Source of the DNA: Ohtaekwangia koreensis
GTDB taxonomy: Bacteria > Bacteroidota > Bacteroidia > Cytophagales > Cyclobacteriaceae
Length of the DNA stretch: 64,000 nucleotides
NCBI RefSeq assembly: GCF_900167975.1
Contig: NZ_FUZU01000002.1
Location: 441,501 to 505,500, forward strand
Direction of reading: 5' to 3'
This document shows positions 27,163-49,892 of the stretch, piece after piece. Positions within the stretch are counted from its first letter, which is position 1; every line of letters starts with the position of its first letter. The notes under the pieces were generated by a model. The model searched no databases, was not told where the DNA came from, and saw nothing but the letters and a program-made list of their open reading frames with translations. Position numbers and translations under genes: made by a program.

Positions 27163-27956
27163 CTTAGTCGCAGGTCGATGATAAAATGATCAGCCATGCC
27201 TGAGAGAAATGAAAAGCCAGAAACTTTTTTCTCCATTACATTCAATCCAAACAACAAGCGCTTTCTACTTGAAAAGAAATTTTCGAGATAGGAAGGTGGC
27301 AGTGCGAACCCAACGGGCTTACGGCTTATCACTTTAAAATTTTCTGACGACCACATCTTTATTTGTGAGGGTTTGAAATACCAGGTTTTAACAGCCGTAC
27401 CATGAAGATCGGCAACTACTTCAGTGCTGGTCCACCTGCGGAAAATATTCTTAAACTGAAAGCGGGTGAGGAAGTATATAGATTCCCACAAACAAAATTT
27501 AGGCATGACCACCGCTATAAATCTTCCTTTCGGAGATAAGATAAGCGGTAATTTTTGAAGTAATTTTTTAAACGATTCAGGATTAATGCAATTCAATCCT
27601 CCGAAGTTTGAGAAGACGAGATCAAATTTTTTATCAAACAATGTTTCATCGAAACTATCAAGGTCAAGGTAATGGGAGCTTATTTTACTTTGCATCGAAA
27701 ACTGATGAGCTTTCTGTTGCGTCACCTTCAACATCTCTTCTGATACATCAGTGGCCACTATATTAAAACCCTTTTCACTAAACAAAACAGCGTCCTCACC
27801 GGTGCCACAATTCAATTCCAGAATTTCAAGTCCACTTAACTGTGGTGTAATCTCTTCAAGGTAGCGCCATACTTGTTTACGCTGTAACTGTCCAATAGCG
27901 CTCTGTGTAAAAACAGAGTCGTAGGCAGAGGCGATGTGATCGAATGGAGCAGCCAT
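27159..27956 (-). CDS. class I SAM-dependent methyltransferase
   Basis: 265 residues from the ATG at 27956, where the sequence begins AAPFDHIASAYDSVF, the usual opening of this methyltransferase type. A TTG at 28013 overlapping the upstream stop would give 284 residues and is the alternative start. SAM motif I is LEILELNCGTGED, with the acidic ATDVSEEML following. It is sandwiched between two paralogous B12 radical SAM genes in one operon and overlaps the next ATG by 4 nt. It may act on the same substrate as those enzymes; substrate unknown. Confidence 0.85.
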   Translation of the reverse strand: MAAPFDHIASAYDSVFTQSAIGQLQRKQVWRYLEEITPQLSGLEILELNCGTGEDAVLFSEKGFNIVATDVSEEMLKVTQQKAHQFSMQSKISSHYLDLDSFDETLFDKKFDLVFSNFGGLNCINPESFKKLLQKLPLILSPKGRFIAVVMPKFCLWESIYFLTRFQFKNIFRRWTSTEVVADLHGTAVKTWYFKPSQIKMWSSENFKVISRKPVGFALPPSYLENFFSSRKRLLFGLNVMEKKVSGFSFLSGMADHFIIDLRLR

Positions 27957-28009
27957 GCGAGTATAGGTTATGAAGTAAGCATTACAAATCTGAACTGTAT
28001 TCTCATGTG

Positions 28010-29485
28010 TCAATTTAAATCAGGTCGTGTAACTCCGAGTTCCTTTAGTTTCTGACGTTGCGCAAATGAAGTAGGAATATAATAAAAAGTTGCCAGCCCT
28101 GCTCGTAAATCCTTATAGTTTAGACGTAATGGATTGCGAAAGAGTTTCTTCAAACTTATATATCCTTTCCGTTTGCGATACATGCTGTGAACATAACGAT
28201 GCAGCTCTCTATAGTATTCACTGGAAAAAGTGCTTTGGAACATCATCGCCAAGTCATTCGAATCGCTCCAGTTCTGTTTTTCGCGAAGCTGGGCTTTTAC
28301 TTTATCGTAAAATTTCGTTCCCGGTAAAGGGTAGGAAACGGAGATACCAACTTCGTCTGGCATCAACTGTAATACCATTGCCAGTGTGGCGTCAATATCT
28401 TCTTGTGTTTCTCCGGTATACCCAAACTGTAAAAAGAAAGCTACTTTAATTCCCTTCTGCTTCATCAAGTGGGTAGCATCGCGAATCTGCTGAACGGTTG
28501 TGCCTTTATCCATGGCATCCAGAATTTTTTGTGAGCCTGATTCTGCGCCTACCCATATAGTTTCTGCGCCCGAACGTGCCAACGCCTCTACCGTATCTTC
28601 TTCCAGAAGTAAATCTGCCCGCGACTGAATCTTGTATTTAAACTGCAATTGCTTCGACAACACCAGGTCTCTGAATTGTTGCACCCAACCTGGTTTTAAT
28701 CCGAATATATCATCGCACATCCAGAAGTGATCAGGTCTATAGTTTTGTAACAGGAATTCAATTTCATTGATCACATGCTTTGGACTGCGCGAATTATAGC
28801 GGTTGCCATAAATTGGCTTAGCACACCAGTTACATTTATAGGGGCAACCTCGGGTGGTTGCTATATTGAGTGAAAAATATCCATGATGCTTAAGCCAAAT
28901 CCGTCTGTATGATTCTATATCGATAAGGTCCCAAGCGGGTAACGGCAAAGTATCCAACTCCCGAATTACAGGACGTGTAGCTGTAACAATTGCCTCGTTA
29001 TTTTTTCGATACGCTATACCTGAAAGTTGCGTAACATTTTGTTTTGCATCGAGCGCTACCAATAGTTCACGTAGTGTTTCTTCTCCTTCGCCTCGAACTA
29101 CGTAATCAACACCATGATCAAAATATTTATCATAGTGATCAGCAGCATCGGAGCTAGATACGATTACAGTACATCCGGATTCCTTTCCAAGTCGCGCCAT
29201 CATAAAAGCCGCCTCGCGCATGTTGGTAAGACACATCTTTGTGAGGTAATTAAAACCATCATCATAGATCACGAGGTACTCGGGCTTGTGCAGCTCTATA
29301 GCAGAAATGATTTCTGAGGCTGAATCACGTAGCGCAGTATCAAAGAGTGCAACGGGAAAATTTGATTCCCGCATTACGGCTGCGGCTAATATAGTTGCCA
29401 ACGGAGGATACGGCTGTTTAAATTGCCATTGCTTCCGGTCAAACTTATAAAAGTATGAATGTGTAAAAAGTATTTTTCCGTTCAT
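28010..29485 (-). CDS. B12-binding-domain radical SAM protein (BchE-like), paralogue
   Basis: 491 residues from the ATG at 29485. That codon overlaps the upstream stop as ATGA, matching the other junctions; an ATG 9 nt further upstream also exists. N-terminal cobalamin-binding-like domain (QPYPPLATILAAAV, RGEGEETLREL), then a radical SAM core with Cys214, Cys218 and Cys221 in RGCPYKCNWCAK, and VGAESGSQK. It aligns by eye along its length with the other radical SAM protein of the operon, including the PxH/RSP spacing after the cysteines and the FGYTGETQEDI segment. Reaction unknown. Confidence 0.9.
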   Translation of the reverse strand: MNGKILFTHSYFYKFDRKQWQFKQPYPPLATILAAAVMRESNFPVALFDTALRDSASEIISAIELHKPEYLVIYDDGFNYLTKMCLTNMREAAFMMARLGKESGCTVIVSSSDAADHYDKYFDHGVDYVVRGEGEETLRELLVALDAKQNVTQLSGIAYRKNNEAIVTATRPVIRELDTLPLPAWDLIDIESYRRIWLKHHGYFSLNIATTRGCPYKCNWCAKPIYGNRYNSRSPKHVINEIEFLLQNYRPDHFWMCDDIFGLKPGWVQQFRDLVLSKQLQFKYKIQSRADLLLEEDTVEALARSGAETIWVGAESGSQKILDAMDKGTTVQQIRDATHLMKQKGIKVAFFLQFGYTGETQEDIDATLAMVLQLMPDEVGISVSYPLPGTKFYDKVKAQLREKQNWSDSNDLAMMFQSTFSSEYYRELHRYVHSMYRKRKGYISLKKLFRNPLRLNYKDLRAGLATFYYIPTSFAQRQKLKELGVTRPDLN

Positions 29486-30429
29486 GACTTCCACGCAATG
29501 TTAAACTTCTTACCAAACGAGTCAATTTTTTCCTGATAGAGCTCTATTACTTTTTTCTGAAAATGACGCGGATGATTTTTTGACGCATGCTTTTTACTCT
29601 TAAAAGCTACTTGGAAATCATCCTTTTCATAATGCTCCCTATATATATGCTCCCATCGTTTCAACGACAGTTTCATAAAATAATTTTCCCACCAGTTGCC
29701 TCCGGCTGTGTCAATTATACCTTCCAAAATTTTTTTTATAAATCCGTTGGAGGTGTGTTGTACTGTATCGACAGGGCGTTGTGTAAAGTTTGGGAAAAAC
29801 TGCAGAAGCCACGCGTTATTCCGAAGTAATTTGATATACAGATCTGGGCTGCACAAAGGAATAACGGTAGCGAGCTCTGTTGCCGTAAATAAATTTTTCT
29901 CTTCGATCTCCAGGTGATCTGTATCTACAAAATAGTTAACACAAAAATATTTGTGTGAGTTAAAAAGGAAAACTCTTTTATATAGTACCAATATCATGCG
30001 CGCAATCCATAATCTTCCAGGCTTGGTGATGATAAAGAAATCAAGATCAGAATTCTCGTCCATATAGCCTTTCGATAACGAACCCGATGCGAGCACTCCA
30101 CGCACAAACGGAAAAGATGAAATGAATTTACCTTTTCGTTTAGCAACTTCAAGAAGCTTCATTGCTTCTTCATTCCCTGCAATTCTACGTTGGGCTAATT
30201 CATTTTTATTTTGAACAGAGAATAAGTCGCCAAATTGAAAAATATAGCCTTTAGCAGAAAGCTCTTTCAATTCAATCTCGATTGTACTTTTGGGGAGATG
30301 TTTCGTGGGAAGGAATCTATACACCTCATCAGCCTTTAATGGATAATTGAAAATATCATAATACAGTATAGTACGAAGGATGCTTTCAGCTACAGGTGCC
30401 AAAATAATATTTTCAATTTCGCTGATCAT
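29482..30429 (-). CDS. nucleotidyltransferase-domain protein with N-terminal winged-helix-like region
   Basis: 315 residues. Residues about 15-75 look like a winged helix (LYYDIFNYPLKADEVYRFL and following). Residues 112-135 carry the polymerase-beta-type nucleotidyltransferase motif: Gly116-Ser117 and the metal-binding Asp128 and Asp130 in a G-S-x(10)-D-L-D arrangement. The C-terminal half is basic with no motif I recognise. Its ATG overlaps the GT2 stop as ATGA, and its stop overlaps the next ATG likewise. The target might be a sugar, lipid or protein; not predictable. Confidence 0.8.
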   Translation of the reverse strand: MISEIENIILAPVAESILRTILYYDIFNYPLKADEVYRFLPTKHLPKSTIEIELKELSAKGYIFQFGDLFSVQNKNELAQRRIAGNEEAMKLLEVAKRKGKFISSFPFVRGVLASGSLSKGYMDENSDLDFFIITKPGRLWIARMILVLYKRVFLFNSHKYFCVNYFVDTDHLEIEEKNLFTATELATVIPLCSPDLYIKLLRNNAWLLQFFPNFTQRPVDTVQHTSNGFIKKILEGIIDTAGGNWWENYFMKLSLKRWEHIYREHYEKDDFQVAFKSKKHASKNHPRHFQKKVIELYQEKIDSFGKKFNIAWKS

Positions 30430-31250
30430 GAGATGTCTTTTAATTGAAGAAGTGTTCTCTCATTAAATAATTTTCTCTCGTTATCTTTTGTCCATCCCCA
30501 CTTATTAAAATATCTAATCGCACTTTGGATATTACAAAAAAGCAATTTAGCATCTTTATAAGAGCCCCTGGCATGATGATGATAAATCGCGGTGTCGGGG
30601 AAATACAAGGTTTGATAATGTTTATGTATCCGCCTTGTCAAATCTGTGTCTTCAGTGTAAAGAAAGAAGCGTTCATCAAATAGGCCTACTTTCCTCAAGG
30701 CTTCAGTTCTAAGAAACATAAAGCAGCCAGAAAGAAAAGGGACATTCATAATCTTATCGTAGCCGGAAAGATGTAGCTCATATTGGAGATTCTCTTTCTC
30801 AAGTTGACTTTTAAAAAAACCTAAAAATCTGCGCATAATTAAAACCTTAGGGCTCGGTAATAATTTGCATAACGGTTGAAGCTTTCCATCCGGATAAAGC
30901 ACCTTCGGCATTACTTGTCCTGCTTCATGATGTTGCTCCATGAACTTGTAAAGTGTGGGTATCACACTTTGATCAAAATAAACATCAGGGTTGAGTATTA
31001 CATGATATTTCGACTCATTCAGAATCTTATTAAGTATAATATTATGTCCGGCTCCAAAGCCAACGTTTCTATTATTAAATATATAATGAATGCGGCTGTT
31101 GTACGCTAGATATTTTAGATCATCCGTTGGAGAGTTATCCAGGATGAACAATTTAGAATGTACAGTGCTTTTTAAAAAACTATGAATAGTCTGCGTAAGC
31201 ATACTTGCTGAATTCTTATATGCAACTATGGAAGCACTTAAATCCCGCAT
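30426..31250 (-). CDS. glycosyltransferase family 2, rhamnosyltransferase-like
   Basis: 274 residues, GT-A fold of the type that adds rhamnose or similar sugars. Motifs: SIVAYKNSASML, the FILDNSP strand, NVGFGAGHN, the ILNPDVYFD metal site, SGCFMFLRTEAL and FFLYTEDTDLTRR. It is the first gene of the six-gene minus operon, with a 199-nt divergent promoter region shared with acs, and overlaps the next ATG by 4 nt. Donor and acceptor unknown. Confidence 0.9.
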   Translation of the reverse strand: MRDLSASIVAYKNSASMLTQTIHSFLKSTVHSKLFILDNSPTDDLKYLAYNSRIHYIFNNRNVGFGAGHNIILNKILNESKYHVILNPDVYFDQSVIPTLYKFMEQHHEAGQVMPKVLYPDGKLQPLCKLLPSPKVLIMRRFLGFFKSQLEKENLQYELHLSGYDKIMNVPFLSGCFMFLRTEALRKVGLFDERFFLYTEDTDLTRRIHKHYQTLYFPDTAIYHHHARGSYKDAKLLFCNIQSAIRYFNKWGWTKDNERKLFNERTLLQLKDIS

Positions 31251-31285
31251 AAACTTTAAAATAAAAAAACCGCAAAATTTTTACA

Positions 31286-31303
31286 GGTGTGTCCCAACAC
31301 ACC
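31286..31303 (-). promoter_or_regulatory. hairpin in the leader of the minus glycan operon
   Basis: Perfect 7-bp inverted repeat GGTGTGT/ACACACC with a 4-nt loop. It lies 36 nt upstream of the GT2 ATG. Read on the minus strand it is followed by a U-rich tract (seven Ts about 20 nt later). It could be an attenuator, a regulator site or the end of an upstream transcript. Confidence 0.4.
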
Positions 31304-31350
31304 ACAAACAAAATTTGAATTTCCGGAAAAAGGATAGAATTTTATCACAC

Positions 31351-31382
31351 TTGTTTATTTCCTGACTCAGGACGCTACTTTG
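31351..31382 (+). promoter_or_regulatory. probable promoter of acs
   Basis: TTG at 31351-31353, 22-nt spacer, TACTTTG at 31376-31382. The -7 box is one base shorter than TAnnTTTG. The leader to the ATG at 31450 would be about 60 nt. Confidence 0.42.
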
Positions 31383-31449
31383 TGAATTTAGGTTGCCCAG
31401 AAATTTATAACAGTAAAACTTTAAACCCAAAAACCTTTCAACTACAACC

Positions 31450-33342
31450 ATGAACGTGATTAGAACTTTTGAAGACTACCACAAACAATATAAAAAAAGT
31501 GTAGAGCATCCGGAAAACTTCTGGAGCGAAATAGCCAGCAGCTTTTATTGGAGAAAAAAATGGGATAAGGTTCTTGAGTGGGACTTCCATAAACCGGAGG
31601 TAAAATGGTTTATAGGTGGCAAGCTTAACATTACTGAAAACTGTCTCGACAGACATTTAATAAAACGTGCTAATCAAACGGCTATCATCTGGGAACCCAA
31701 CAATCCGAATGATGATGCTAAACATATAACCTATCAACAGCTGTACGATGAAGTTTGCAAAACAGCAAACATGCTGAAGGCAAATGGTGTAAAGAAAGGT
31801 GATCGAGTATGTATTTATCTTCCCATGATACCAGAGCTGGCTTATGCCATACTGGCCTGTGCACGCATCGGTGCTGTACACTCTGTAGTGTTTGCAGGTT
31901 TCTCTGCCAAGTCAATGACAGACCGCATTACTGATGCAGGATGCAAAATTGTTATAACATCCGATGGTGCATACCGCGGTGATAAAACTATAAATCTTAA
32001 AGGTATTGTTGATCAGGCGTTGGAACATTGCCCGGATGTAACCCGGGTTATTGTGAAAGAACATGTTCATACAAGTGCGCCTATGAAAGCAGAACGCGAT
32101 GTATGGTGGCATGATGAAATCAAGAAAGTAGATTCAAATTGTGTAGCCGAAGAAATGGACTCTGAAGATATGCTCTTCATACTCTATACTTCAGGCTCTA
32201 CCGGAAAGCCCAAGGGTATGGTTCACACCTGTGGCGGTTACATGGTAAATATCAACTATACTTTCCAAACAGCTTTTCAATATCATGATGGCCAGATATA
32301 TTGGTGTACAGCAGATATAGGCTGGGTTACAGGTCACTCCTATATTCTTTATGGACCATTATCTGCCGGGGCTACTACGGTAATGTTCGAAGGTGTACCA
32401 TCCTGGCCGGATTGGGGAAGGTTCTGGCAGGCAATAGAACGTCATAAGGTAAATATATTTTATACTGCACCAACCGCTATACGTTCGCTTCAACAAGCAC
32501 CAATCAGCTTCGTAGAAAAATATGACCTGTCATCTTTAAAAGTTTTAGGAAGTGTTGGCGAGCCTATCAATGAAGAGGCATGGCATTGGTATAATAAAAA
32601 TATCGGTAAGGGTAAATGTCCGATCGTTGATACCTGGTGGCAGACTGAAACCGGTGGTTTTATGATCTCTCCTATAGCACATGTAACGCCTCTTAAGCCT
32701 GCTCATGCAACCTTACCGCTACCAGGTGTACAACCTGCCGTAATGAATGAAAGCGGACTTGAAATAGAGGGGAATAATATTGAAGGAAGATTGACGATCA
32801 AATATCCATGGCCTTCTATGGCACGAACGATTTATGGTGATCATCAACGATTTAAAGAGACTTACTTCTCCAGCTTTCCCGGAAAATATTTCACGGGAGA
32901 TGGATGCAAGCGCGATGAGGACGGATACTATCGTATAACAGGAAGGGTAGACGATATCATTATTGTATCGGGCCACAATCTTGGAACTGCTGAGATAGAA
33001 AGTGCTATCGATGAGCACTCGTCCGTATGCGAAACCGCAGTGGTAGGGTTCCCGCACGATATAAAGGGTCAAGGTATATATGCTTTTGTGATCTGTTATG
33101 AGAAACCCGCTGAAGAAGAAAAGCTTCGCGCTGAAATAAAGGAAACTGTCTCAAAGATCATCGGCCCTATTGCCAAACCCGATAAAATTCAGTTTGTAAG
33201 TGGTCTTCCCAAGACACGATCGGGTAAAATCATGCGCAGAATTTTAAGAAAGGTAGCGGAGGGTGACACAAACAATTTAGGTGATGTCACTACATTACTC
33301 GATCCAGGGGTTGTAGAAGAAATTAAAGCGGGCGCGCTATAA
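31450..33342 (+). CDS. acs: acetyl-CoA synthetase (AMP-forming)
   Basis: 630 residues, full length for the family. Converts acetate, ATP and CoA to acetyl-CoA via acetyl-AMP. Motifs include YTSGSTGKPKGMVHT for ATP binding, DTWWQTETGG, the hinge region GRVDDIIIVSGHNLGTAEIE, and the conserved acetylatable Lys in KTRSGKIMRR near residue 600. The sequence lies next to the glycan locus but is unrelated in function. A probable promoter (31351-31382) precedes it and a bidirectional terminator follows. Confidence 0.96.
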   Translation: MNVIRTFEDYHKQYKKSVEHPENFWSEIASSFYWRKKWDKVLEWDFHKPEVKWFIGGKLNITENCLDRHLIKRANQTAIIWEPNNPNDDAKHITYQQLYDEVCKTANMLKANGVKKGDRVCIYLPMIPELAYAILACARIGAVHSVVFAGFSAKSMTDRITDAGCKIVITSDGAYRGDKTINLKGIVDQALEHCPDVTRVIVKEHVHTSAPMKAERDVWWHDEIKKVDSNCVAEEMDSEDMLFILYTSGSTGKPKGMVHTCGGYMVNINYTFQTAFQYHDGQIYWCTADIGWVTGHSYILYGPLSAGATTVMFEGVPSWPDWGRFWQAIERHKVNIFYTAPTAIRSLQQAPISFVEKYDLSSLKVLGSVGEPINEEAWHWYNKNIGKGKCPIVDTWWQTETGGFMISPIAHVTPLKPAHATLPLPGVQPAVMNESGLEIEGNNIEGRLTIKYPWPSMARTIYGDHQRFKETYFSSFPGKYFTGDGCKRDEDGYYRITGRVDDIIIVSGHNLGTAEIESAIDEHSSVCETAVVGFPHDIKGQGIYAFVICYEKPAEEEKLRAEIKETVSKIIGPIAKPDKIQFVSGLPKTRSGKIMRRILRKVAEGDTNNLGDVTTLLDPGVVEEIKAGAL

Positions 33343-33355
33343 GAATACTTTTAAG

Positions 33356-33400
33356 GAGTTCACGTGAAGATATATATTCATTCTTCACGTGAATTCTCTT
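33356..33400. terminator. bidirectional terminator between acs and the DUF1905 gene
   Basis: Near-perfect 15-bp stem (GAGTTCACGTGAAGA paired with TCTTCACGTGAATTC-type arm, one G-T pair) around an 11-nt loop, followed by a T-rich stretch. It lies between convergent stops at 33342 and 33415, so it can serve both genes. Confidence 0.75.
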
Positions 33401-33414
33401 TCTTTATATAGTTA

Positions 33415-33918
33415 TCACAAATTCTTATTCTCACGAATCATCTCAGAGAACCCTTGTTTTTTGCTAAAGGCGGTTAATGCCATCACAATTCGTTTTGATT
33501 TAGTAGCAGTCGTCTTTGCACTGTCAATCCACTTGCTATAGTAATTCTGATGCGACATAGGCAACGACTTAAAGTATGCCAATGAATCCGGCTCTTCCTT
33601 TAAACATTTCATCAAGTCTGCCGATAGCGCAAGCTTTCGCTCGTCTATCTCCATTACTACTTTTATTTTATCGCCTTCTTTCTTGCCAAGAGATTTACGC
33701 ATAGCGGCATTCACCGGCATTATAAACGTGCCATCACCCATCGGCAAAAGTGCAACCTTCTCAAAAACAAATTGGTCGAGTGTCCCCTTCACCCGGAAAG
33801 ATATTTTTGTATTAGGTTTGAGTTTTTGTGCCTGGCTCTCGCTTATCTCAATATAGGTCCAGCCCGATTTTTCGCCTTTCTTATTAAACTTTAATATAGT
33901 GGTGGTATAGCGGATCAT
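33415..33918 (-). CDS. DUF1905/YdeI-type protein
   Basis: 167 residues. The N-terminal 90 residues match the DUF1905 beta-barrel pattern (GKKEGDKIKVVMEIDERK, FIMPVNAAMRKSLG). The C-terminal part resembles the YdeI/OmpD-associated domain (SLPMSHQNYYSKWIDSAKTTATKSKRI). No signal or TM segment. Function of the family is unknown. It is convergent with acs. A weak box, TATATTTG-like at 7 of 8 positions, lies about 25 nt before the ATG (33944-33951). Confidence 0.85.
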   Translation of the reverse strand: MIRYTTTILKFNKKGEKSGWTYIEISESQAQKLKPNTKISFRVKGTLDQFVFEKVALLPMGDGTFIMPVNAAMRKSLGKKEGDKIKVVMEIDERKLALSADLMKCLKEEPDSLAYFKSLPMSHQNYYSKWIDSAKTTATKSKRIVMALTAFSKKQGFSEMIRENKNL

Positions 33919-33975
33919 GGTGCCGTTTGCTTTAACGAGTTTACAAATATTTTATAAATGACGGAATGTTTGTAT

Positions 33976-33990
33976 CAACAATAATTGTTG
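33976..33990. promoter_or_regulatory. perfect palindrome in a divergent promoter region
   Basis: CAACAAT-A-ATTGTTG, 7-bp arms around one base. It lies between the divergent DUF1905 and nitroreductase genes, about 25 nt beyond the weak -7 box of the former, where a repressor or activator could bind. No regulator gene is adjacent. Confidence 0.3.
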
Positions 33991-34170
33991 TAAATCTGGC
34001 TTTGTCGAGTGTAATAATTGCTAGAAGTTTTATGACAGCGGATAGGAATCTTGAATGAATCTGTAGTTTATTATGTCCCCTTTTGTATGAATACACCAGC
34101 ATGAACCTAACGCATCTCCGCCCCATTGTTTCTTGTAATCAAGAATGCGTACTTTGAAAAAATAATATCA

Positions 34171-34755
34171 ATGTTGACGATGGAAAAATCATCCAGTATC
34201 GAACATCCGATTTTAGATTTGATTAAAAACAGAAGAAGTGTAAGAGCGTTCTCAAGCGAACCTATAACAGCGGACAAAATAAATTCGTTGTTCGAAGCCA
34301 CACGCTGGGCACCATCAAGCAGCAACGAGCAGCCTTGGGTATATCTATATGCTACGCACGATCAAGAGCTCTGGCATAAAATGTTTGAGTGTCTTAATGA
34401 AAGTAACAGGATCTGGGTAAAGGATGCACCGCTTCTTATTTTAAGTCTGGCGCGAAAGACATTTACACACTATGGCAGCGCGAACGCACATGCCATGTAC
34501 GACTTAGGAGGAGCAAACTCATTCCTGTCACTGCAGGCCGTTGAGATGGGTTTACAAGTACGACAGATGGCCGGCTTCAGTCACATAAAAGCAATTGAAA
34601 ATCTCAAGATCCCGGATATATATGAGATCGGTGTATTTATAGGGGTTGGATATCCGGGAGACCCTACAAATCTTCCGGAAAAATTAAAACAGAGAGAGCT
34701 TGCTCCACGCGAGCGGTTCTTACAGCAGGAGTTTGTTATGAATAAAACATTTTGA
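34171..34755 (+). CDS. nitroreductase family protein
   Basis: 194 residues from the ATG at 34171 (ATG at 34180 is also possible; the TTG further upstream would add a poorly conserved extension). FMN-dependent oxidoreductase fold using NAD(P)H. The N-terminal KNRRSVRAFSSEPI motif, the ATRWAPSSSNEQPW FMN-binding stretch and VGYPGDP near the C-terminus support the family. Natural substrate unknown. The stop overlaps the OsmC gene start as TGATG, so the two are probably translated together, consistent with a stress-related pair. Confidence 0.9.
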   Translation: MLTMEKSSSIEHPILDLIKNRRSVRAFSSEPITADKINSLFEATRWAPSSSNEQPWVYLYATHDQELWHKMFECLNESNRIWVKDAPLLILSLARKTFTHYGSANAHAMYDLGGANSFLSLQAVEMGLQVRQMAGFSHIKAIENLKIPDIYEIGVFIGVGYPGDPTNLPEKLKQRELAPRERFLQQEFVMNKTF

Positions 34756-35150
34756 TGGTTCCGGAAAAGACAGTAGTAGCTACGATCGGCAGGGATGCGT
34801 ATGCTACCAGGCTTGAGACACCTTCGCATATAGTGATGGCGGATGAGCCTGTGAAAGATGGAGGTAAAGATATAGGCCCTCAGCCTTTTGATTTTCTCAG
34901 GATGTCGCTCGCATCATGCACAGCTATAACATTGCGTATGTATGCTGACCGAAAGGGGTGGGGTGTCGAGCAAATACAGGTTACGATATCAACCGAACAG
35001 GTCGGAGGAAAAACAATATTTCATCGTGTCTTAGAAATATCAGGGAGTATAGATGAACATCAGCGCAAACGCCTACTACAAATTGCCAATGCATGCCCTA
35101 TACATAAAGTATTGACGAACCCGATCGAAGTACAAACCCTGATCACATGA
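34755..35150 (+). CDS. OsmC family protein
   Basis: 131 residues from the ATG at 34755, which shares its A with the nitroreductase TGA. OsmC/Ohr proteins reduce organic hydroperoxides through two cysteines. The family cysteines are in SLASCTAITLRMYADRKGW and in NACPIHKVL. Length is normal. It probably forms an operon with the nitroreductase. Peroxidase activity is expected but not certain for the OsmC branch. Confidence 0.9.
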   Translation: MVPEKTVVATIGRDAYATRLETPSHIVMADEPVKDGGKDIGPQPFDFLRMSLASCTAITLRMYADRKGWGVEQIQVTISTEQVGGKTIFHRVLEISGSIDEHQRKRLLQIANACPIHKVLTNPIEVQTLIT

Positions 35151-35179
35151 AGTATATATGTATAATTAAGTATATATAA

Positions 35180-36091
35180 TTACTTTTTGAGTAAATCTGC
35201 GAGTGCACTCTCCAGTTTTTCATATTGAAATTTGAATCCTGCATCTTCAATTTTCTGTGACGAAACGTTACTACCTTTCAATACAAGGTCAGCCATTTCA
35301 CCCAATAATGTTTTCAAAACAAAGCTCGGAACTGCCGGCAAGACTACGGGTCTATTGATTTGCTTGGCTATAGCTTTTGTCAGGTCACGGTTTGTGACAG
35401 CGTATGGTCCTGTGCCGTTGTAAGCACCTTGCATCTTTTCATCCTCCACAGCTTTTAGAAACATTGCAGCAAGATCGTCAAGGTGAATCCAGCTTATATA
35501 CTGATCTCCCGTACCCAGTGGTGCACCAACCCAAAACTTGATCGGCTTAACCATCTCTTTTAAAGCTCCTCCCTTCTCACTCAATACTATACCTATCCTG
35601 ATCTTCACGACACGAATTCCAAGCTCACTGATCCGATCAACCTCTGCTTCCCATTGACGCACTACATTCGCCAGGAAATCTGTTCCCGGCTCATCGTTCT
35701 CCTTAAATTTCTTTTCGTTATCATCAAAGCCATAGTATCCAATCGCAGAAGCGGATATAAAACTTGTTACGGTATGTTTTCTCTTTCTCAATTCTTCATA
35801 TAGCAATTGTGTGGATTGTGTACGACTCTTCAGGATCTCCCACTTACGCTCTTCGGTCCACGGCTTGTCAGCTATACCAGCACCTGCCAAATGCACGATG
35901 GTGTTTGTGCCTTCGAAAGCATGTGGGTCAATTTGCTTTTTATTTATATCCCACAAAAAAGTCTTCGCTTTACCCTGCCGGTGATTACGACTCAGGTGAG
36001 CAACATGATTGCCCTGTTGGTATAGCAACTCTGTAAGTCGGGTTCCGATCAAACCGGAAGCACCTGTGATCAATATATTTTTCGAACTCAA
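35180..36091 (-). CDS. TIGR01777 family (SDR/epimerase-type) oxidoreductase
   Basis: 303 residues from a TTG start at 36091; no better in-frame ATG is near. Extended SDR Rossmann fold with NAD(P)-binding ITGASGLIGTRLTELL, the AGAGIADKPWTEERK segment, and YYGF in the active-site region. The C-terminal DUF1731-type part ends with LEKLESALADLLKK-like sequence. Often annotated as a putative cell-division inhibitor SulA homologue, for which there is no good evidence. It is convergent with OsmC; an AT-only inverted repeat lies between the stops. Confidence 0.9.
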   Translation of the reverse strand: MSSKNILITGASGLIGTRLTELLYQQGNHVAHLSRNHRQGKAKTFLWDINKKQIDPHAFEGTNTIVHLAGAGIADKPWTEERKWEILKSRTQSTQLLYEELRKRKHTVTSFISASAIGYYGFDDNEKKFKENDEPGTDFLANVVRQWEAEVDRISELGIRVVKIRIGIVLSEKGGALKEMVKPIKFWVGAPLGTGDQYISWIHLDDLAAMFLKAVEDEKMQGAYNGTGPYAVTNRDLTKAIAKQINRPVVLPAVPSFVLKTLLGEMADLVLKGSNVSSQKIEDAGFKFQYEKLESALADLLKK

Positions 36092-36129
36092 TTTTATTTA
36101 GTTTTGATGCCCTATATTAAACCAGTAAC

Positions 36130-36894
36130 ATGCATTTTATAAAAAAGTTTACATGGATAGTACTGTTCACTTCGAGTGTGCTAACAATGTCAGCGCAAAC
36201 TGTAAAAGTAAAAAAAGAAAATACGCGAATTACAGGCGACAGTGCAGAAGGATATGAGGTTGAGCTTGAAGGAACGGTGAACGAAGTACACAGTGCCTTC
36301 ACCAAATTTCTAAAACTTTATGGAAAAGTAAAACAAAGTGAAGGTATTCTAACAATTAACGAACTCGCTATCAATGGCAGTACGTATACTTTCAGTATAT
36401 ACGCAACTGTAAAAGAGACTGGCAAAAATGCCACGGCGTGGATTGGATCGAAGTCCTCCGGCCAAGGGACGACAGATGCCAGCAATGTACATGCAGCCTT
36501 AGAGAAGTTGATAGCTGATTTTGGCATAAAGTACTATCGTGATAAAATTCAAGTTCAGATCGATGAAACCAATCGCGCCTACCAGGCGGTGGAGAAACAA
36601 AAGCAGCGACTAGCGAATGAAAACAAAACGTTGCTCACCAAGGTAGAAGATAATAAGCGGGAGAAAATTCAACTTGAAAAAGCACTCGAGAATAACAAAC
36701 TCGAAAACGAGACGCTTCTCAAGCGAATAGAAAAAAACAAACTCGATCAGGACTCTGTCGCACTGGCCGGTGAACAATCCTTATATAGAAATTCAATTTG
36801 TTTCTTATTTGAAGGAATAGCTTCATCTGATGACTTAATCTCAATTTTATCCAGCCTACGCTTAACGGCCTTTACATTAGTTGCAGATGTGTAA
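36130..36894 (+). CDS. exported coiled-coil protein with a foreign 3' end (broken gene)
   Basis: 254 residues as it reads now. Signal peptide about 1-23 (LTMSAQ). Residues 24-135 form a conserved-looking domain with a Trp-Ile-Gly segment. Residues 136-216 are a coiled coil rich in Lys, Glu and Asn. From residue 217 on, about 38 residues are the antisense reading of the RHS-like gene on the other strand. So the true C-terminus, probably only a short stretch, has been replaced. Family function unknown. The start looks normal (ATG 36130). Confidence 0.7.
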   Translation: MHFIKKFTWIVLFTSSVLTMSAQTVKVKKENTRITGDSAEGYEVELEGTVNEVHSAFTKFLKLYGKVKQSEGILTINELAINGSTYTFSIYATVKETGKNATAWIGSKSSGQGTTDASNVHAALEKLIADFGIKYYRDKIQVQIDETNRAYQAVEKQKQRLANENKTLLTKVEDNKREKIQLEKALENNKLENETLLKRIEKNKLDQDSVALAGEQSLYRNSICFLFEGIASSDDLISILSSLRLTAFTLVADV

Positions 36895-37883
36895 AAGGAT
36901 ACAGTAAGTTCTGATGTCTTTATCTTACTCAGAAAAATAGATTCTGCATATAGGTCCGCATAAACAGCTTGGTAAGATCGTTCCTCCTCACCGCAATTAG
37001 AAATAATCTGATAGTACTCATTCTTAGAATTACGGATTGACTTATTTCCTTTGTAAGTTAAATCATACTCAAACTCTATTCTATTCTTCCCATCAGCAGA
37101 GATTATTTTTGTCAAGTACCAAGCTGTATTAATCAGGGCAGAGTTTCCTCCACGACATCTCCATGTGTTACCACCATAAACACTTGATGATTTTTCCGGT
37201 TGTTCGAAAAGATATATTGTTCCATCTTTTCCTATAGCTTCCCAACTTGTAATATCAGTATAAACACTTTCCTCAGTTCTTCTAGTCTCAGTATATTTGA
37301 TCTTAAACTTATCGGATACAGGAAATCCATCTTTGTTTATAAAGAAATAACCCTGATAACCACTGAAATTAAATATAAACTTGTCCGGGCTAGTGTCTGT
37401 TCCACAGGCCCAGTTTTTCTCATCTTCATCATACACCGCTTTATCAAGTCGAAAAGTATTGGTTACATTGCTCCATGTAGAAGGGTTAAAATCAAACTTA
37501 GGAAAGGATTTAGATTTAATATTTCCATAGATATACCTCTCATCTTCAGTTCCTCTGGTTTCACGGATAATCACACCTCCCGCGTTCAAAAACCAAGATG
37601 ATCCTACCCAAGAAGGCGCGTCTTCAACTTTTATCCCATTCTGATTATACATAAGGCTAACGGTATGCTTGAGAGGCCCCTCACTTAAAGATAGTAATTC
37701 GATTTTTTGCTGAACTATACCCCGAGAGTAATCGACTGTTGTATTTCCATATCGCGGAAAATTCGCTGCGTTCGCCGAAGGCTTGATAATGTCCTGAAAA
37801 GCAAAACCGGTTGTAGGTTGTGCATCAACACTATAGGAAACAACTATGATAACTAAAAAGATACTTACAACCTTCTTTATCAT
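36747..37883 (-). CDS. RHS-like exported protein, N-terminal fragment (truncated)
   Basis: 378 residues. Signal peptide about 1-21 (SVDAQ). The mature part resembles the N-terminus of large Bacteroidota RHS/YD-repeat proteins: GNTTVDYSRGIVQQKIEL, LKHTVSLMYNQNGIKVED, ASWVGSSWFLNAGGVIIRE-type strands. Full-length relatives run to over a thousand residues with repeats and a variable C-terminus; here the frame ends soon after IEFLYKD, with 9 odd residues antisense to the neighbour. The promoter box TAACTTTG is intact. The region is visibly more AT-rich than its flanks. Confidence 0.7.
   Translation of the reverse strand: MIKKVVSIFLVIIVVSYSVDAQPTTGFAFQDIIKPSANAANFPRYGNTTVDYSRGIVQQKIELLSLSEGPLKHTVSLMYNQNGIKVEDAPSWVGSSWFLNAGGVIIRETRGTEDERYIYGNIKSKSFPKFDFNPSTWSNVTNTFRLDKAVYDEDEKNWACGTDTSPDKFIFNFSGYQGYFFINKDGFPVSDKFKIKYTETRRTEESVYTDITSWEAIGKDGTIYLFEQPEKSSSVYGGNTWRCRGGNSALINTAWYLTKIISADGKNRIEFEYDLTYKGNKSIRNSKNEYYQIISNCGEEERSYQAVYADLYAESIFLSKIKTSELTVSFYTSATNVKAVKRRLDKIEIKSSDEAIPSNKKQIEFLYKDCSPASATES
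36775..36790. other. tail-to-tail junction of two broken genes
   Basis: Plus-strand coiled-coil coding sense ends about 36777 (Gly-Glu-Gln) and minus-strand RHS-like sense ends about 36777-36785 (Leu-Tyr-Lys-Asp). Both frames read on into the other gene's antisense, giving a 148-nt opposing overlap. This is best explained by a deletion or rearrangement end-point, or by an assembly join. Confidence 0.6.
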
Positions 37884-37914
37884 AACAGGTGGGTAGTTTA
37901 AGGTAATTGAACAA

Positions 37915-37922
37915 CAAAGTTA
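37915..37922 (-). promoter_or_regulatory. -7 box for the RHS-like fragment
   Basis: Minus-strand TAACTTTG, exact TAnnTTTG, 31 nt upstream of the ATG. It suggests the 5' end of the broken gene is intact. Confidence 0.48.
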
Positions 37923-38102
37923 TGTAATTAGAAGAAGTATTCTACTCTACATCTGGTATTTTATGAATCAATCATTTGAATAATAAATATTCCCTGACCT
38001 AGATCTATAACTAGTATATATATAGTCTATTTTCAATAAATTATATACCTAAATATACATTACCCTTTAAATCAAATAAACATCAGAGCATTTATTGATA
38101 AC

Positions 38103-38137
38103 AAAAAAGCCACTTCCTATAGTGTAGGAAGTGGCTT
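38103..38137 (-). terminator. intrinsic terminator after the lipoprotein gene
   Basis: 12-bp perfect stem (38108-38119 with 38125-38136) and 5-nt loop TAGTG. On the minus strand it is followed by the U-run from A6 at 38103-38108. It lies 23 nt past the lipoprotein stop. Confidence 0.88.
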
Positions 38138-38159
38138 GCTCTGAGAGCTTAAGGGTTTA

Positions 38160-39362
38160 TTAAAACGCTGTATATCCAGTCCAAGAGAATAAAGTACCTG
38201 GATTAGCTACACCTGTATTTGCATTTGCAGGAATCGTAATTGTTCCATTGTTAGCACCTGGTTTATTATCGCCTGTATTAAGGTTAGCACCTGTACCAGA
38301 AATGTTAACTGAAGTTGTACCAGCTGCATCGCCAGCAGAATCTGTAAGGTCTACGAAATCGCCAGGAGCAGGAGTGTTAGCAGAGAATATTATATTAGCA
38401 TTTGTAACAGTCGCTGAACTTCCTCTTCTGATTTTAACAACATCAACCATACCATCAGCAGCTGTAGAGTTATTTACAATTGTAAGGTTAGTTATAGTCG
38501 GATTTGACTGTGGAGTCAATGAAGGAGTCAATCCATCAAGGTTACCGTCACCTTCAAGACCGCGTGGATCCGCTGTTACTGCATCAAAACCAAGTTCACG
38601 TTTTCCATAAAGGTTAGTAGCAGTACCTTTCCAGCCTTGCGTCCAATCAAACATATCGTCCTTTGCATTAATAGCAAGCGCGTTGGATATGTTTACAGTT
38701 CCACCAAACCATTCGAAGGCATCATCATCACCATAGAATACAGCAACGTTGCTGATTGAAGTTCCTGAGCCTACTCCGTAAAGAGTAAGACCATTAAATT
38801 CTTTTTCACCATTGATACGCGCACCGGTGTATTCCAAAATCAGGTAATCTATATTTCCAGAATCATCTGCATCATCACTACCACCATAAATAAAGTCAAC
38901 AACTTCTGTTACTGCAGATTGACCGCCAGTGATTGTCGCATTACCCATTAATAGCAAACCACCCCAGTCTCCAGCTTCAGGAGAAGAAGCACTTGACGTA
39001 ATTTTTATCGGAGCTGATGCTGTACCTACAGCCTGAATTTCTGCATCCTTTTCAACGGCAATATAAACGTTTGTTCCACCTGCAGTAGCTTTGATAGTTG
39101 TTCCTGCTTCAATGGTTAATTTACCTCCGGCACTTACTACAAGCGGACCTGTTAAGATCCAGCTTTTGCTCGCGGCAAGAGTGATATCACCTGTGATTTC
39201 GCCTTGGAGTTTATCAACTACTAAATCTACATCATCTTGACTTGCAATTATACCATCAGCGGTTTGTGTCGTGTCATCATCGTCATCATCAGAGCAGCTA
39301 GAGAAAGCTAAAACTGCTGAGATCATCAAGAGGTAGCTCAGAAAATTCTTAAGCATTTTCAT
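38160..39362 (-). CDS. surface-type lipoprotein, beta-helix-like, partner of the TonB receptor
   Basis: 400 residues. Lipoprotein signal with Cys23 in the FSSC lipobox. The run of six Asp shortly after the Cys resembles the Bacteroidota lipoprotein export signal for surface display. The mature part is Gly/Asn/Thr-rich with repeated strands (LTIEAGTTIKA, AGDWGGLLLMGNA, WFGGTVNISNA) typical of a right-handed beta-helix. It lies 144 nt downstream of a TonB-dependent receptor on the same strand. Such proteins are often mislabelled multidrug transporters; ligand unknown. Confidence 0.75.
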   Translation of the reverse strand: MKMLKNFLSYLLMISAVLAFSSCSDDDDDDTTQTADGIIASQDDVDLVVDKLQGEITGDITLAASKSWILTGPLVVSAGGKLTIEAGTTIKATAGGTNVYIAVEKDAEIQAVGTASAPIKITSSASSPEAGDWGGLLLMGNATITGGQSAVTEVVDFIYGGSDDADDSGNIDYLILEYTGARINGEKEFNGLTLYGVGSGTSISNVAVFYGDDDAFEWFGGTVNISNALAINAKDDMFDWTQGWKGTATNLYGKRELGFDAVTADPRGLEGDGNLDGLTPSLTPQSNPTITNLTIVNNSTAADGMVDVVKIRRGSSATVTNANIIFSANTPAPGDFVDLTDSAGDAAGTTSVNISGTGANLNTGDNKPGANNGTITIPANANTGVANPGTLFSWTGYTAF

Positions 39363-39506
39363 TTTTAAAAGAGTTTAGTTTAAAGTTTTTTATAGTACTA
39401 ATGTTCACTTGAAATTGGCCTCAAAGATCAGACTCAGATATTAACTATGCCGTAAAGCATTGTTATCAAATTATTAAGAGAGCGATCTCTGCTAGAATAG
39501 CTATCT

Positions 39507-42263
39507 TTAAAACTTATAAGTAAAACCGAGAGAGGTTGTTATTCCCTTTCTATAATCACTGATTATTTCATTAGCGCCTGAATCAATTTTCTTTGTCAGA
39601 CGATAATTCGGGTTCAGTATATTTCGAACATTCAAGCTCAAGGAAAGTTTCTCACTCAGTCCTAGTTTTGATATAAAATCTAGTCTTGGTATACCGTTTT
39701 CATAGATGTGTTGATTGCCAACAGGTGCTCCTATAGAGTATATTCTGTCACTGAAAAAATTAAATACAAGAGCCGTTGTCAAACTTCTACCTTTTTGGCC
39801 TTGAGTATTGAATGTAACATCAGAGTTTACGAGCCATGGGCTAGCCCCTTCTAATGCAGATGTTTTATTTGTAGGCTGGAATGCTAAATCATCTGTAGAC
39901 ACATCCTTTAAATCTTGTTTAGAGTAGAGATACGAAACATTTAGTCCCACATCTAAAGAAGTATTCTTATCGTTTTTATTAATAGTACTATACAGTCCTT
40001 TTCTAACTTCTAGCTCAACCCCCGCAGCATCTGCGTTCCCTGTATTAACATAAGATAATTCGTTTGCCGCAGAAGCAACTTGAACTCTATTGATTGCATT
40101 TTCAATTTTCTTATAGAAGACTGTAACAGCGATCAACTCTTTGTTTGCAAAGTAGTGCTCATAGCGCAAGTCCACATTAAAATTCTCTGCTGGCAACAAT
40201 TTTGGATTACCGAAACTTGAGACGTTAACATCTTCATAATAGAATGGAGCCACCTCTTTAAATTGAGGCATCGTGTAGCTTTTGCTTGAGGCCAGCCTAA
40301 CAATGTTATCATCAGATATACTATACTTTATATTTAAGCTGGGGAGAAAATAAGATGGCTCTCTGACTTCCGTATTATCATTACGGATATTCGGATTTCT
40401 TTCATCGAGATTAGTATCCCAACCTACTTCTTGACGAATTTTTTCATACCGAGCACCAACATTTACAGTTAATCGCGAAGTAACATCAAACACAACATTC
40501 GCTATCGCTGCGTGAATCGTTCTGTCACCTGTATATGTAAAGGGGTTAAGTGCTTTTGAGCCAGTGCCACGTCCTGTTTCCATTTCAAAAGTCCCATTAT
40601 CAATTGACTGTTGATTAAATAAAGCATCTGGATCATTTACAGATACTGATACCGCTGTCGGGAAATCAAAGTTAAATTGAGTTGCTTCAAAATCGCGGCT
40701 AGTATTGCGGAGGTTATAACCGATGGTAATTTTGTTATTAGATTCCTCATCAAATTTATAGGTAAGGCTTGCATTGGCAGCTATATCATTTTCCTTCAAT
40801 GAAGAATAAAATCTGTGATTAAATGCCGGAGAGTTCGTGTTGACGCGATATCCATCACCATCGAATACATAAAAACTTGATCTTCTATCGGGTTCATCGC
40901 CATGAGCAACATTAAATGAGCCACCTACATCCAGCTTGAGATTTTGAGATAAATTGATTGCAGAGATAAGCTGATTCACCAGCAAGCTGTTATTATTCTG
41001 CTGTTGTCTTCTTACAAAACTCTTATAGGCGTTCGGATCAGTTATGTCATCATTACCATTAACAGTGAAACCTTCATAATTACCCACAGACTGCTTGTTA
41101 TCGTGTATATATATAGCGTTATAGTAGATGCTGTTTCCCTCACCGAATTCATACGCCACACTTGCAAGTGCAATCTGTGATGCATTATAGTCCGACTTGC
41201 TATAATTAAAATCCTGACGTATACCTCCTGTTGGCGATACCTGACGAACCTGTCCTTTTTTAAAGAGGTAGTCGTTACCCATTGCCGCCACCAAAAATGT
41301 TCTTATAGTGTTTTGCCCAACAGAGAAAGTTTTACCTCCTGATAAAGATAGATTCAAATTAGTCAACGGACCTGATACTTTACTCGGCTGAAAAGAGTGA
41401 TCAAATGAATAGTCTCTGAGGTTGGAGATTGGCACATTCCGATTGGTTGTACCCAAAAAGTTAGTTCCATCAGCTCTATAAAAATCTTGTGAAACGGTTT
41501 GTGAGTTTACCCCAAGAGAAGCACTAACTTTAAACTCTTTATCCTCAAATAGCTTTTTGGAAATGATGTTGACGTTGGCTCCAGTTACGTCACCAAAAAT
41601 ATTAGCACCAAATGTCTTATTAACATCGATGCTATTGATAATGTCAGACGAAAAGAAATCCAGCGTTATGTTTTTATACTCAGGATCTTCTGAAGGTAAT
41701 GGAAGGTTATTTAACGACGTAGAGTTATACCGATCACCCAAACCACGAACAAATACGTTCTTCACGCCTTCCTGCTTACTTACTCCTGTTACTTGCGTAA
41801 CCGCAGCTTCTGCGTTTGAAACACCTTTCCTTGAGAGCTCAATTGCACCTATATTTTGAATAAACTCAACTGCATTTTTTCTCTCTACTAATAAAAAGGA
41901 TTCTGATGTTTTGTCTGCCGTTCCTGTAATTACTACCTCCTGAAGTTGTTTATCTTCAGAATCAAGTTGCAATTCAATTTTAACTTCTTCACCGGCTTTT
42001 ACAATCAAACTGTCTACAGTTAATTTCTGAAAGCCTATGTAGGTTGTGGTCAATCGATACGTACCGGCATCAACGGTGAAAGAAAAGTTACCACTAATAT
42101 CTGTAGTTGAACCGATAGATGTTCCATCAATCACAACATTAGCACCGATTGCATCTTCACCAGAAAGCTTTTCTTTAACATGACCAGAAATAATACCTTT
42201 CTGACCAAAAGAGAAATAAGCCATCGAAGCAAATAATACTGTCAAGATAAATTTAGAATGCAT
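39507..42263 (-). CDS. TonB-dependent outer-membrane receptor
   Basis: 918 residues from the ATG at 42263, chosen because it opens directly on a signal peptide (FILTVLFASMAYFSFGQ) and lies 17 nt after a GACCTTTG box. The ATG at 42290 would add 9 residues and overlap that box. Domains: carboxypeptidase-like beta domain (about 20-105), plug (about 115-230, VFVRGLGDRYNST), and a 22-strand barrel ending in a Phe (TTSLGFTYKF). No SusD partner is adjacent; the lipoprotein gene downstream is the likely partner. Ligand unknown. Confidence 0.9.
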   Translation of the reverse strand: MHSKFILTVLFASMAYFSFGQKGIISGHVKEKLSGEDAIGANVVIDGTSIGSTTDISGNFSFTVDAGTYRLTTTYIGFQKLTVDSLIVKAGEEVKIELQLDSEDKQLQEVVITGTADKTSESFLLVERKNAVEFIQNIGAIELSRKGVSNAEAAVTQVTGVSKQEGVKNVFVRGLGDRYNSTSLNNLPLPSEDPEYKNITLDFFSSDIINSIDVNKTFGANIFGDVTGANVNIISKKLFEDKEFKVSASLGVNSQTVSQDFYRADGTNFLGTTNRNVPISNLRDYSFDHSFQPSKVSGPLTNLNLSLSGGKTFSVGQNTIRTFLVAAMGNDYLFKKGQVRQVSPTGGIRQDFNYSKSDYNASQIALASVAYEFGEGNSIYYNAIYIHDNKQSVGNYEGFTVNGNDDITDPNAYKSFVRRQQQNNNSLLVNQLISAINLSQNLKLDVGGSFNVAHGDEPDRRSSFYVFDGDGYRVNTNSPAFNHRFYSSLKENDIAANASLTYKFDEESNNKITIGYNLRNTSRDFEATQFNFDFPTAVSVSVNDPDALFNQQSIDNGTFEMETGRGTGSKALNPFTYTGDRTIHAAIANVVFDVTSRLTVNVGARYEKIRQEVGWDTNLDERNPNIRNDNTEVREPSYFLPSLNIKYSISDDNIVRLASSKSYTMPQFKEVAPFYYEDVNVSSFGNPKLLPAENFNVDLRYEHYFANKELIAVTVFYKKIENAINRVQVASAANELSYVNTGNADAAGVELEVRKGLYSTINKNDKNTSLDVGLNVSYLYSKQDLKDVSTDDLAFQPTNKTSALEGASPWLVNSDVTFNTQGQKGRSLTTALVFNFFSDRIYSIGAPVGNQHIYENGIPRLDFISKLGLSEKLSLSLNVRNILNPNYRLTKKIDSGANEIISDYRKGITTSLGFTYKF

Positions 42264-42280
42264 GAGTAAATTATTTGCTA

Positions 42281-42288
42281 CAAAGGTC
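42281..42288 (-). promoter_or_regulatory. probable -7 box for the TonB receptor
   Basis: Minus-strand GACCTTTG, 7 of 8 to TAnnTTTG, 17 nt before the ATG at 42263. A similar GATCTTTG lies 59 nt before the lipoprotein ATG (39422-39429). Confidence 0.38.
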
Positions 42289-42290
42289 AT

Positions 42291-49721: not shown

Positions 49722-49789
49722 CTATATTCTTAAGGGCTCATCGGCAGCACCAAATGCTTACTTGAATGAATTTTTATCCCGCAGAACTG

Positions 49790-49883
49790 CACAGATTAAC
49801 GCAGATAATAAATGCATTTAAATCTGCGCCTATCTGTGAGAATCTGCGGGAGTAAAATTTAAGATTAATGAAATCTGCGGGAG
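49790..49883. repeat. intergenic repeat cluster with inverted and direct copies
   Basis: An imperfect 17-bp inverted repeat (49790-49806 and 49822-49838; 14 of 17 positions pair) is followed by two direct copies of AATCTGCGGGAG (49841-49852 and 49872-49883, 31 nt apart). The CAGATTAACGCAGAT / ATCTGCG vocabulary resembles interspersed non-coding repeats I recall in other Bacteroidota genomes. Confidence 0.65.
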
Positions 49884-49892
49884 CATTGGACT

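What the first reader, a model, noticed from the sequence alone, without database searches (positions are those of the whole stretch)
36747..36894. Two truncated genes joined tail to tail
A plus-strand coiled-coil gene and a minus-strand RHS-like gene both lose their natural 3' ends at about 36777-36785. Each frame then runs on in antisense of the other for 9-38 residues. Real convergent genes do not normally overlap by 148 nt with both ends non-homologous. This suggests a deletion end-point, possibly with loss of the RHS core and its variable tail, or an assembly mis-join.
Basis: partly seen in the sequence, partly recalled or inferred. Interest (0 to 1): 0.7.

Follow-up and report, generated by a model that had tools for sequence, protein, structure and literature searches.

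The report
Two clipped genes at a swapped cassette
Two unrelated genes in a Bacteroidota genome have each lost their ends where a stretch of DNA that differs from the closest relative was joined on without matching sequence; this looks like a real but ordinary genome scar.

Summary
The plus-strand coiled-coil gene (CC) is normal up to base 36777 (residue 216). Its 16-17 residue tail, present in 14 of 14 distinct relatives aligning that far, is missing. From 36778 the sequence is the first 368 codons of a minus-strand RHS-associated gene; ten aligned homologues run on for 222-862 residues. The 148-nt antisense overlap is just two frames running to their next stops. The junction is also the left edge of a 5.5-kb block (36778-42270) that differs from the closest relative held, G005 (95-96% identical outside; 92% in the last 450 bp of CC). 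G005 has 5.2 kb there, with another TonB receptor, another lipoprotein and an intact CC tail. No second copy of the junction, no copy of the G005 spacer and no recognised RHS remainder was found in the genome. Most likely an illegitimate join at the edge of a receptor-cassette replacement cut both genes; RHS insertion followed by deletion is almost as likely, and without reads a mis-assembly is not excluded. Where tested, the RHS core lies in the next gene. Explainable, low interest.

The parts
36130..36777 (+). Genuine part of CC, an unnamed coiled-coil gene with a signal-peptide-like start (judged by eye); 216 codons
   Evidence: Aligned with relatives to residue 216; no Pfam or NCBIfam family above its cut-off
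36777..36778 (.). Junction: last base alignable with CC relatives / first base of the RHS fragment
   Evidence: blastn to G005 ends at 36777; per 30-bp bin identity is 24-30 of 30 before it (one bin 19) and 10-13 of 30 after it; the first base after it already differs from G005
36778..36894 (+). Run-on of the CC frame: 38 unrelated codons and a stop, antisense to the RHS fragment
   Evidence: Unlike the conserved CC tail; run-on length within chance
36778..37883 (-). 5' fragment (368 codons, signal-peptide-like start judged by eye) of an RHS-associated gene
   Evidence: 25-46% identity and 26-41% to frames mostly 900-1,700 aa long; alignment
36747..36777 (-). Run-on of the RHS frame: 10 codons and a stop antisense to CC
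   Evidence: last 10 residues unrelated
37884..38100 (.). AT-rich spacer upstream of the RHS fragment (28.5% GC over 37884-38160), without a match in G004's spacer
38107..38137 (-). Terminator-like hairpin behind the lipoprotein gene
38160..39362 (-). Lipoprotein partner gene of the TonB cassette, allele A
   Evidence: 96% aa identity to G004; 36-41% to the gene at this place in G005 and G001
39507..42290 (-). TonB-dependent receptor, allele A
   Evidence: Pfam plug and barrel; 91% aa identity to G004, 28-32% to G005 and G001
36778..42270 (.). Whole block (5,493 bp) that differs from the closest relative G005, which has 5,229 bp here (L070 448-5676)

Best explanation
The junction is a real, non-homologous (illegitimate) recombination scar at the left edge of a swapped cassette. 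Shown: CC lost its last 16-17 codons, the RHS-associated gene kept only its first 368 codons, and the block 36778-42270 differs wholly from the closest relative held while the flanks stay alike. Inferred: a DNA piece carrying TonB receptor, lipoprotein partner and the start of an RHS locus entered this lineage. It paired by homology on its right side, in the shared leader and ATPase region beyond 42271, and was joined by illegitimate recombination inside CC on its left side, deleting the resident 5.2 kb including the CC tail. That is homology-facilitated illegitimate recombination (HFIR). The RHS fragment would then mark where the incoming DNA was cut.
For: Sharp boundaries at 36777/36778 and near 42271-42281 against G005. 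Insert 5,493 bp against loss of 5,229 bp; PMC3240628 (passages) says HFIR generally gives a deletion of similar size to the insert. Left side non-homologous, right side homologous. G005's CC tail and spacer are absent from this genome (25 matches, best E 0.86), and no RHS remainder lacking its N-terminus was recognised. One event would explain both truncations and the allele difference. ComEC and DprA families are present, but they also ring in 10 and 11 of 14 control genomes, E. coli included, so this is weak.
Against: The direction of the swap is not resolved. Synonymous divergence of allele A between window and G004 (pS 0.42 partner, 0.63 receptor) equals that of allele B between G005 and G001 (0.42, 0.66), so neither allele looks newer. 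Allele-A-like cassettes also sit at this place in other genera of the family, so A could be ancestral and G005 the one that changed. No donor was found: 0 of 8 neighbourhoods with allele-A-like partners had an RHS match, and G004 has none there. The left flank is not quite like the rest: CC differs from G005 more than its neighbours do (pS 0.27 against 0.13-0.22). Micro-homology of 3-10 bp cannot be tested without the donor. The segment is about five times the average (1 kb) given in PMC3240628, which also reports HFIR as 100 to a million times rarer than homologous recombination and, in its own E. coli test, mostly duplications instead of the expected deletions (passages).
Confidence: 0.48

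Rival explanations
1. Insertion then deletion: cassette A is ancestral in this lineage, an RHS locus lay between its lipoprotein gene and CC, and a later deletion fused RHS codon 368 to CC codon 216. G005 separately acquired cassette B.
For: G004 has cassette A next to an intact CC with only about 370 bp between (L069 9219-9588) and no RHS. Allele-A-like cassettes occur at the same place in other genera. RHS loci of this kind are common in the genome: seven other matches at E <= 0.001.
Against: Needs at least two more events, one in each of two close lineages. G005's crossover would have to lie at or beyond about 36777, because window and G005 are alike up to that base. The one stretch scanned for repeats, 36500-38300, shows no direct repeat at the ends of the RHS fragment.
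Confidence: 0.38
2. Assembly mis-join or a chimeric contig.
For: Reads were not available. G005's own assembly breaks within this same CC gene, with a 127-bp contig overlap, so the locus can trouble assemblers.
Against: The junction lies deep inside a 1.41-Mb contig of a 6-contig genome. The stretch 36600-38200 matches only itself apart from a local hairpin and short weak matches, so no repeat is visible that could cause a mis-join. Gene order on both sides is colinear with G005, and cassette plus CC with G004.
Confidence: 0.08
3. Inversion with one break in CC and one in an RHS gene elsewhere, the reciprocal product being kept.
For: The opposed orientation of the two 5' parts is what such an inversion would give.
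Against: No copy of the CC tail and spacer of G005 in the genome. Of 15 RHS C-terminal matches, 12 lie in seven frames that have an N-terminal match and 3 lie in two frames without one, of 2005 and 848 aa; I looked at these two only as open frames. Gene order continues colinear with G005 beyond 42271.
Confidence: 0.03
4. A natural pair of convergent genes that end here in this clade.
For: Both frames are open and free of internal stops.
Against: 14 of 14 distinct relatives that align through CC residue 216 carry the 16-17 residue tail; 10 of 10 aligned RHS homologues continue well beyond residue 368.
Confidence: 0.03

Closest known systems
Homology-facilitated illegitimate recombination (Streptococcus pneumoniae, Acinetobacter baylyi, Pseudomonas stutzeri; PMC3240628, passages seen)
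   Same: Insertion coupled with a deletion of similar size, one flank homologous, the other not
   Different: Block is 5.2-5.5 kb instead of about 1 kb on average; donor unknown, micro-homology untestable; a natural event whose direction is unresolved
T6SS effector displacement in Vibrio cholerae (PMC5361080, passages seen)
   Same: The authors propose, as a putative mechanism, an HFIR-like exchange with one conserved anchor side and an illegitimate other end
   Different: There effector-immunity modules are exchanged; here a TonB receptor cassette, with an RHS-associated fragment at its edge. The paper also calls HFIR quite rare in other organisms
RHS-associated two-gene loci of Cyclobacteriaceae (a gene of about 940-1,220 aa, followed by a DUF6443 gene in the three cases tested)
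   Same: The fragment's 368 codons align with the N-terminal part of the upstream gene
   Different: The remaining 590-860 residues of the longer members and any downstream RHS gene are absent at this locus

Membership tests
Homology-facilitated illegitimate recombination product | Insertion coupled with deletion of resident DNA | tested here: met
   5,493 bp in the window against 5,229 bp in G005; which genome is the changed one is unknown
Homology-facilitated illegitimate recombination product | One side joined within homologous sequence | tested here: met
   Right side: leader and ATPase region beyond 42271 shared with G005, G001, G003 and G004
Homology-facilitated illegitimate recombination product | Other side non-homologous | tested here: met
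   Left side 36777/36778
Homology-facilitated illegitimate recombination product | 3-10 bp micro-homology at the illegitimate join | not testable with these tools
   Needs the donor RHS sequence; the closest RHS relative found is about 40% identical in protein
RHS-associated upstream gene | N-terminal region similar in order and spacing | tested here: met
   Residues 1-368 align with ten homologues, two of them from this genome
RHS-associated upstream gene | C-terminal region ending in a YD-type repeat | tested here: not met
   Absent; the gene is truncated
RHS-associated upstream gene | Followed by a DUF6443 gene | tested here: not met
   CC follows instead; DUF6443 follows in 3 of 3 loci tested, out of 13 loci listed
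Mobile element or transposase insertion | Direct or inverted repeats at the two ends of the insert | tested here: inconclusive
   None at the ends of the RHS fragment in 36500-38300; the far end of the block near 42270 was not scanned, and transposases were not searched for

The most novel reading that the evidence does not exclude
The place between the ATPase gene and CC is a standing exchange site for surface-receptor cassettes in Cyclobacteriaceae. TonB receptor and lipoprotein alleles are swapped through a conserved leader on one side and by illegitimate joining on the other, at times dragging in or clipping RHS-type genes.
Probability: 0.3. Interest if true: 0.4.

Novelty: new member of a known kind. 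Interest (0 to 1): 0.2.

Why it matters
It is a clean natural example of an illegitimate junction that cut two unrelated genes, with the left boundary placed to the base and the right one to about ten bases by a 95%-identical relative. If the one-event reading holds, it records HFIR-scale DNA exchange outside the species in which the process was measured. It also warns annotators that both proteins are truncated and should not be read as natural overlapping genes.

Tried and rejected
Retained inversion: searched the genome for the missing CC tail and the G005 spacer and for RHS C-terminal parts; recognised no reciprocal product. Recent import of cassette A from a G004-like donor: the lower synonymous divergence of the partner gene looked like a sign, but the same values for the other allele between G005 and G001 show it is a property of these genes, so I dropped it. 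Finding the RHS donor: a genome-contig scan with the fragment found no relative (38 stretches matched a pattern, none confirmed); among 390 genomes of the family, the own one included, 62 had a match at E <= 1e-20, the best about 40% identical. RHS next to allele-A-like cassettes: none in 8 neighbourhoods, the 8 best places after the window and G004; the same 8 gave no CC match either. Repeat-mediated mechanism: no repeats at the ends of the RHS fragment (only 36500-38300 scanned). Named families for CC and the RHS fragment: none above cut-off. Papers: one search listed 10 of 49 papers on HFIR, of which I saw passages of two; one search listed 10 of 28, titles and abstract beginnings only; one search listed one paper, not on this subject.

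Full report
Setting. The window lies at C5:441501-505500 of a 7.24-Mb genome in 6 contigs. Named records found with the CC alignment include Dawidia soli, Parachryseolinea silvisoli, Pseudochryseolinea flava and several metagenome-assembled Cyclobacteriaceae or Flammeovirgaceae, so this is probably a Chryseolinea-like bacterium; the genome itself is unnamed here. G005, a metagenome assembly titled 'uncultured Bacteroides sp.', is the closest relative held: 95-96% nucleotide identity over the flanks, 92% over the last 450 bp of CC.

Observation. CC (36130-36894, +) and the RHS-like frame (36747-37883, -) overlap by 148 nt. In one search, 28 of 59 genomes have a CC match, the own genome included. 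The six other genomes of the genus all match, to residue 216 or 217. In one search I examined 41 loci: 7 gave no tblastn match, 14 aligned to an earlier residue (166-212) and ended in other short tails, and 20 aligned to residue 216. Those 20 are 14 distinct contigs, six having been fetched twice, and 14 of 14 continue with a 16-17 residue tail ending in VN or VND. The window has 38 unrelated codons instead. In one search I aligned the RHS frame with ten homologues chosen from the hits, two of them from this genome. The match runs to residue 368; the homologues continue for 586-862 residues, except two that continue for 222 and 267, the latter running to the edge of its contig. In one search, 24 of 59 genomes, the own one included, have a match. 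Most frames are 900-1,700 aa, but short or interrupted ones exist (for example G028 218 aa, G053 159 aa with a stop, G015 183 aa), so broken copies of this family are not unique.

The overlap itself is within chance. After the junction CC runs 38 codons and RHS 10. In antisense of the RHS fragment 14% of starts run at least 38 codons, and in antisense of CC 70% run at least 10.

What lies around it. blastn of window 24001-52000 against G005 gives 26956-36452 and 36328-36777 (two contigs of G005 that overlap by 127 bp), then nothing until 42271, then up to 52000, with a gap of about 170 bases at 49722-49892. The 30-bp identity bins fall at 36778 and recover by 42281. In place of window 36778-42270, G005 has the CC tail, a small lipoprotein gene, a lipoprotein partner and a TonB receptor (L070 448-5676); its partner and receptor are 38% and 28% identical to the window's. 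G001 has the same set as G005, and G002 a more distant version. G004 has the window's alleles (96% and 91%), an intact CC and no RHS: about 370 bp lie between its cassette and its CC homology, where the window has about 1.3 kb. Of 8 neighbourhoods of allele-A-like partners in other genera, four have ATPase, receptor, partner and epimerase in that order. A fifth has the first three, at a contig edge. One has all four in another arrangement, and two have no ATPase match in the stretch. None has a CC or RHS match.

What the fragment is. Its full-length homologues are genes of about 940-1,220 aa that end in one YD-type repeat. Three downstream neighbours that I tested, of 13 loci listed, all carry DUF6443, and one of them also an RHS repeat. 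Of three upstream genes tested, one showed an RHS repeat of its own. So the RHS core and variable tail would probably have been in a second gene; nothing of it was seen at this locus.

Is it an artefact? The stretch 36600-38200 matches only itself in the genome, apart from its own terminator hairpin and short weak matches. The neighbours are colinear with G005, and the cassette and CC with G004. A mis-join usually needs a repeat (general knowledge), and none is visible. Reads would settle it and were not available.

How it arose. The genome lacks G005's CC tail and spacer. Of 15 matches to the RHS C-terminal profile, 12 fall in seven frames that also have an N-terminal match; 3 fall in two frames (2005 and 848 aa) without one, which I saw only as open frames. 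So no reciprocal product was recognised. A one-event account is HFIR: homology on the right, illegitimate joining on the left, resident DNA lost. PMC3240628 (passages) gives these traits and 3-10 bp micro-homology, but also a mean size near 1 kb, low frequency and, in E. coli, mostly duplications. PMC5361080 (passages) offers the same idea as a putative mechanism for Vibrio effector genes and calls it quite rare elsewhere. Against certainty: window-G004 synonymous differences in cassette A (pS 0.42 and 0.63) equal those of cassette B between G005 and G001 (0.42 and 0.66), so neither cassette looks newly arrived. CC itself differs more from G005 (pS 0.27) than its neighbours do (0.13-0.22), which I cannot explain. 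If A is ancestral, the RHS fragment and the CC truncation are a separate insertion and deletion. I rate the one-event account slightly higher, because G005's crossover would otherwise have to fall at or beyond about the same base, 36777.

Verdict. Very probably a real illegitimate junction that truncated two unrelated genes, at the edge of a variable TonB cassette.

Noticed in passing
window 38160-42290; L070 1329-5696; L072; L074; L075: The receptor/lipoprotein cassette between the ATPase gene (42661) and CC differs between species of one genus (two well-separated allele types plus others; in G006 the order of the two genes is reversed), with a conserved leader at the receptor start.
   Followed up: partly
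L070 1-127 and L071 1-127 (G005 contigs C67 and C84): The G005 metagenome assembly breaks inside the CC gene with a 127-bp overlap, as an assembler may do at a fork; strains in that sample may differ at this locus.
   Followed up: no
window 36130-36777 and relatives: CC belongs to a coiled-coil family with matches in 28 of 59 genomes, the own included, without a Pfam or NCBIfam name above cut-off.
   Followed up: no
window 36130-36777: CC differs more from G005 (pS 0.27) than the neighbouring genes do (0.13-0.22).
   Followed up: no
window 37828-37839 and 38114-38125: A perfect 12-nt inverted repeat links the start of the RHS fragment and the terminator hairpin behind the lipoprotein gene; possibly chance.
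   Followed up: no
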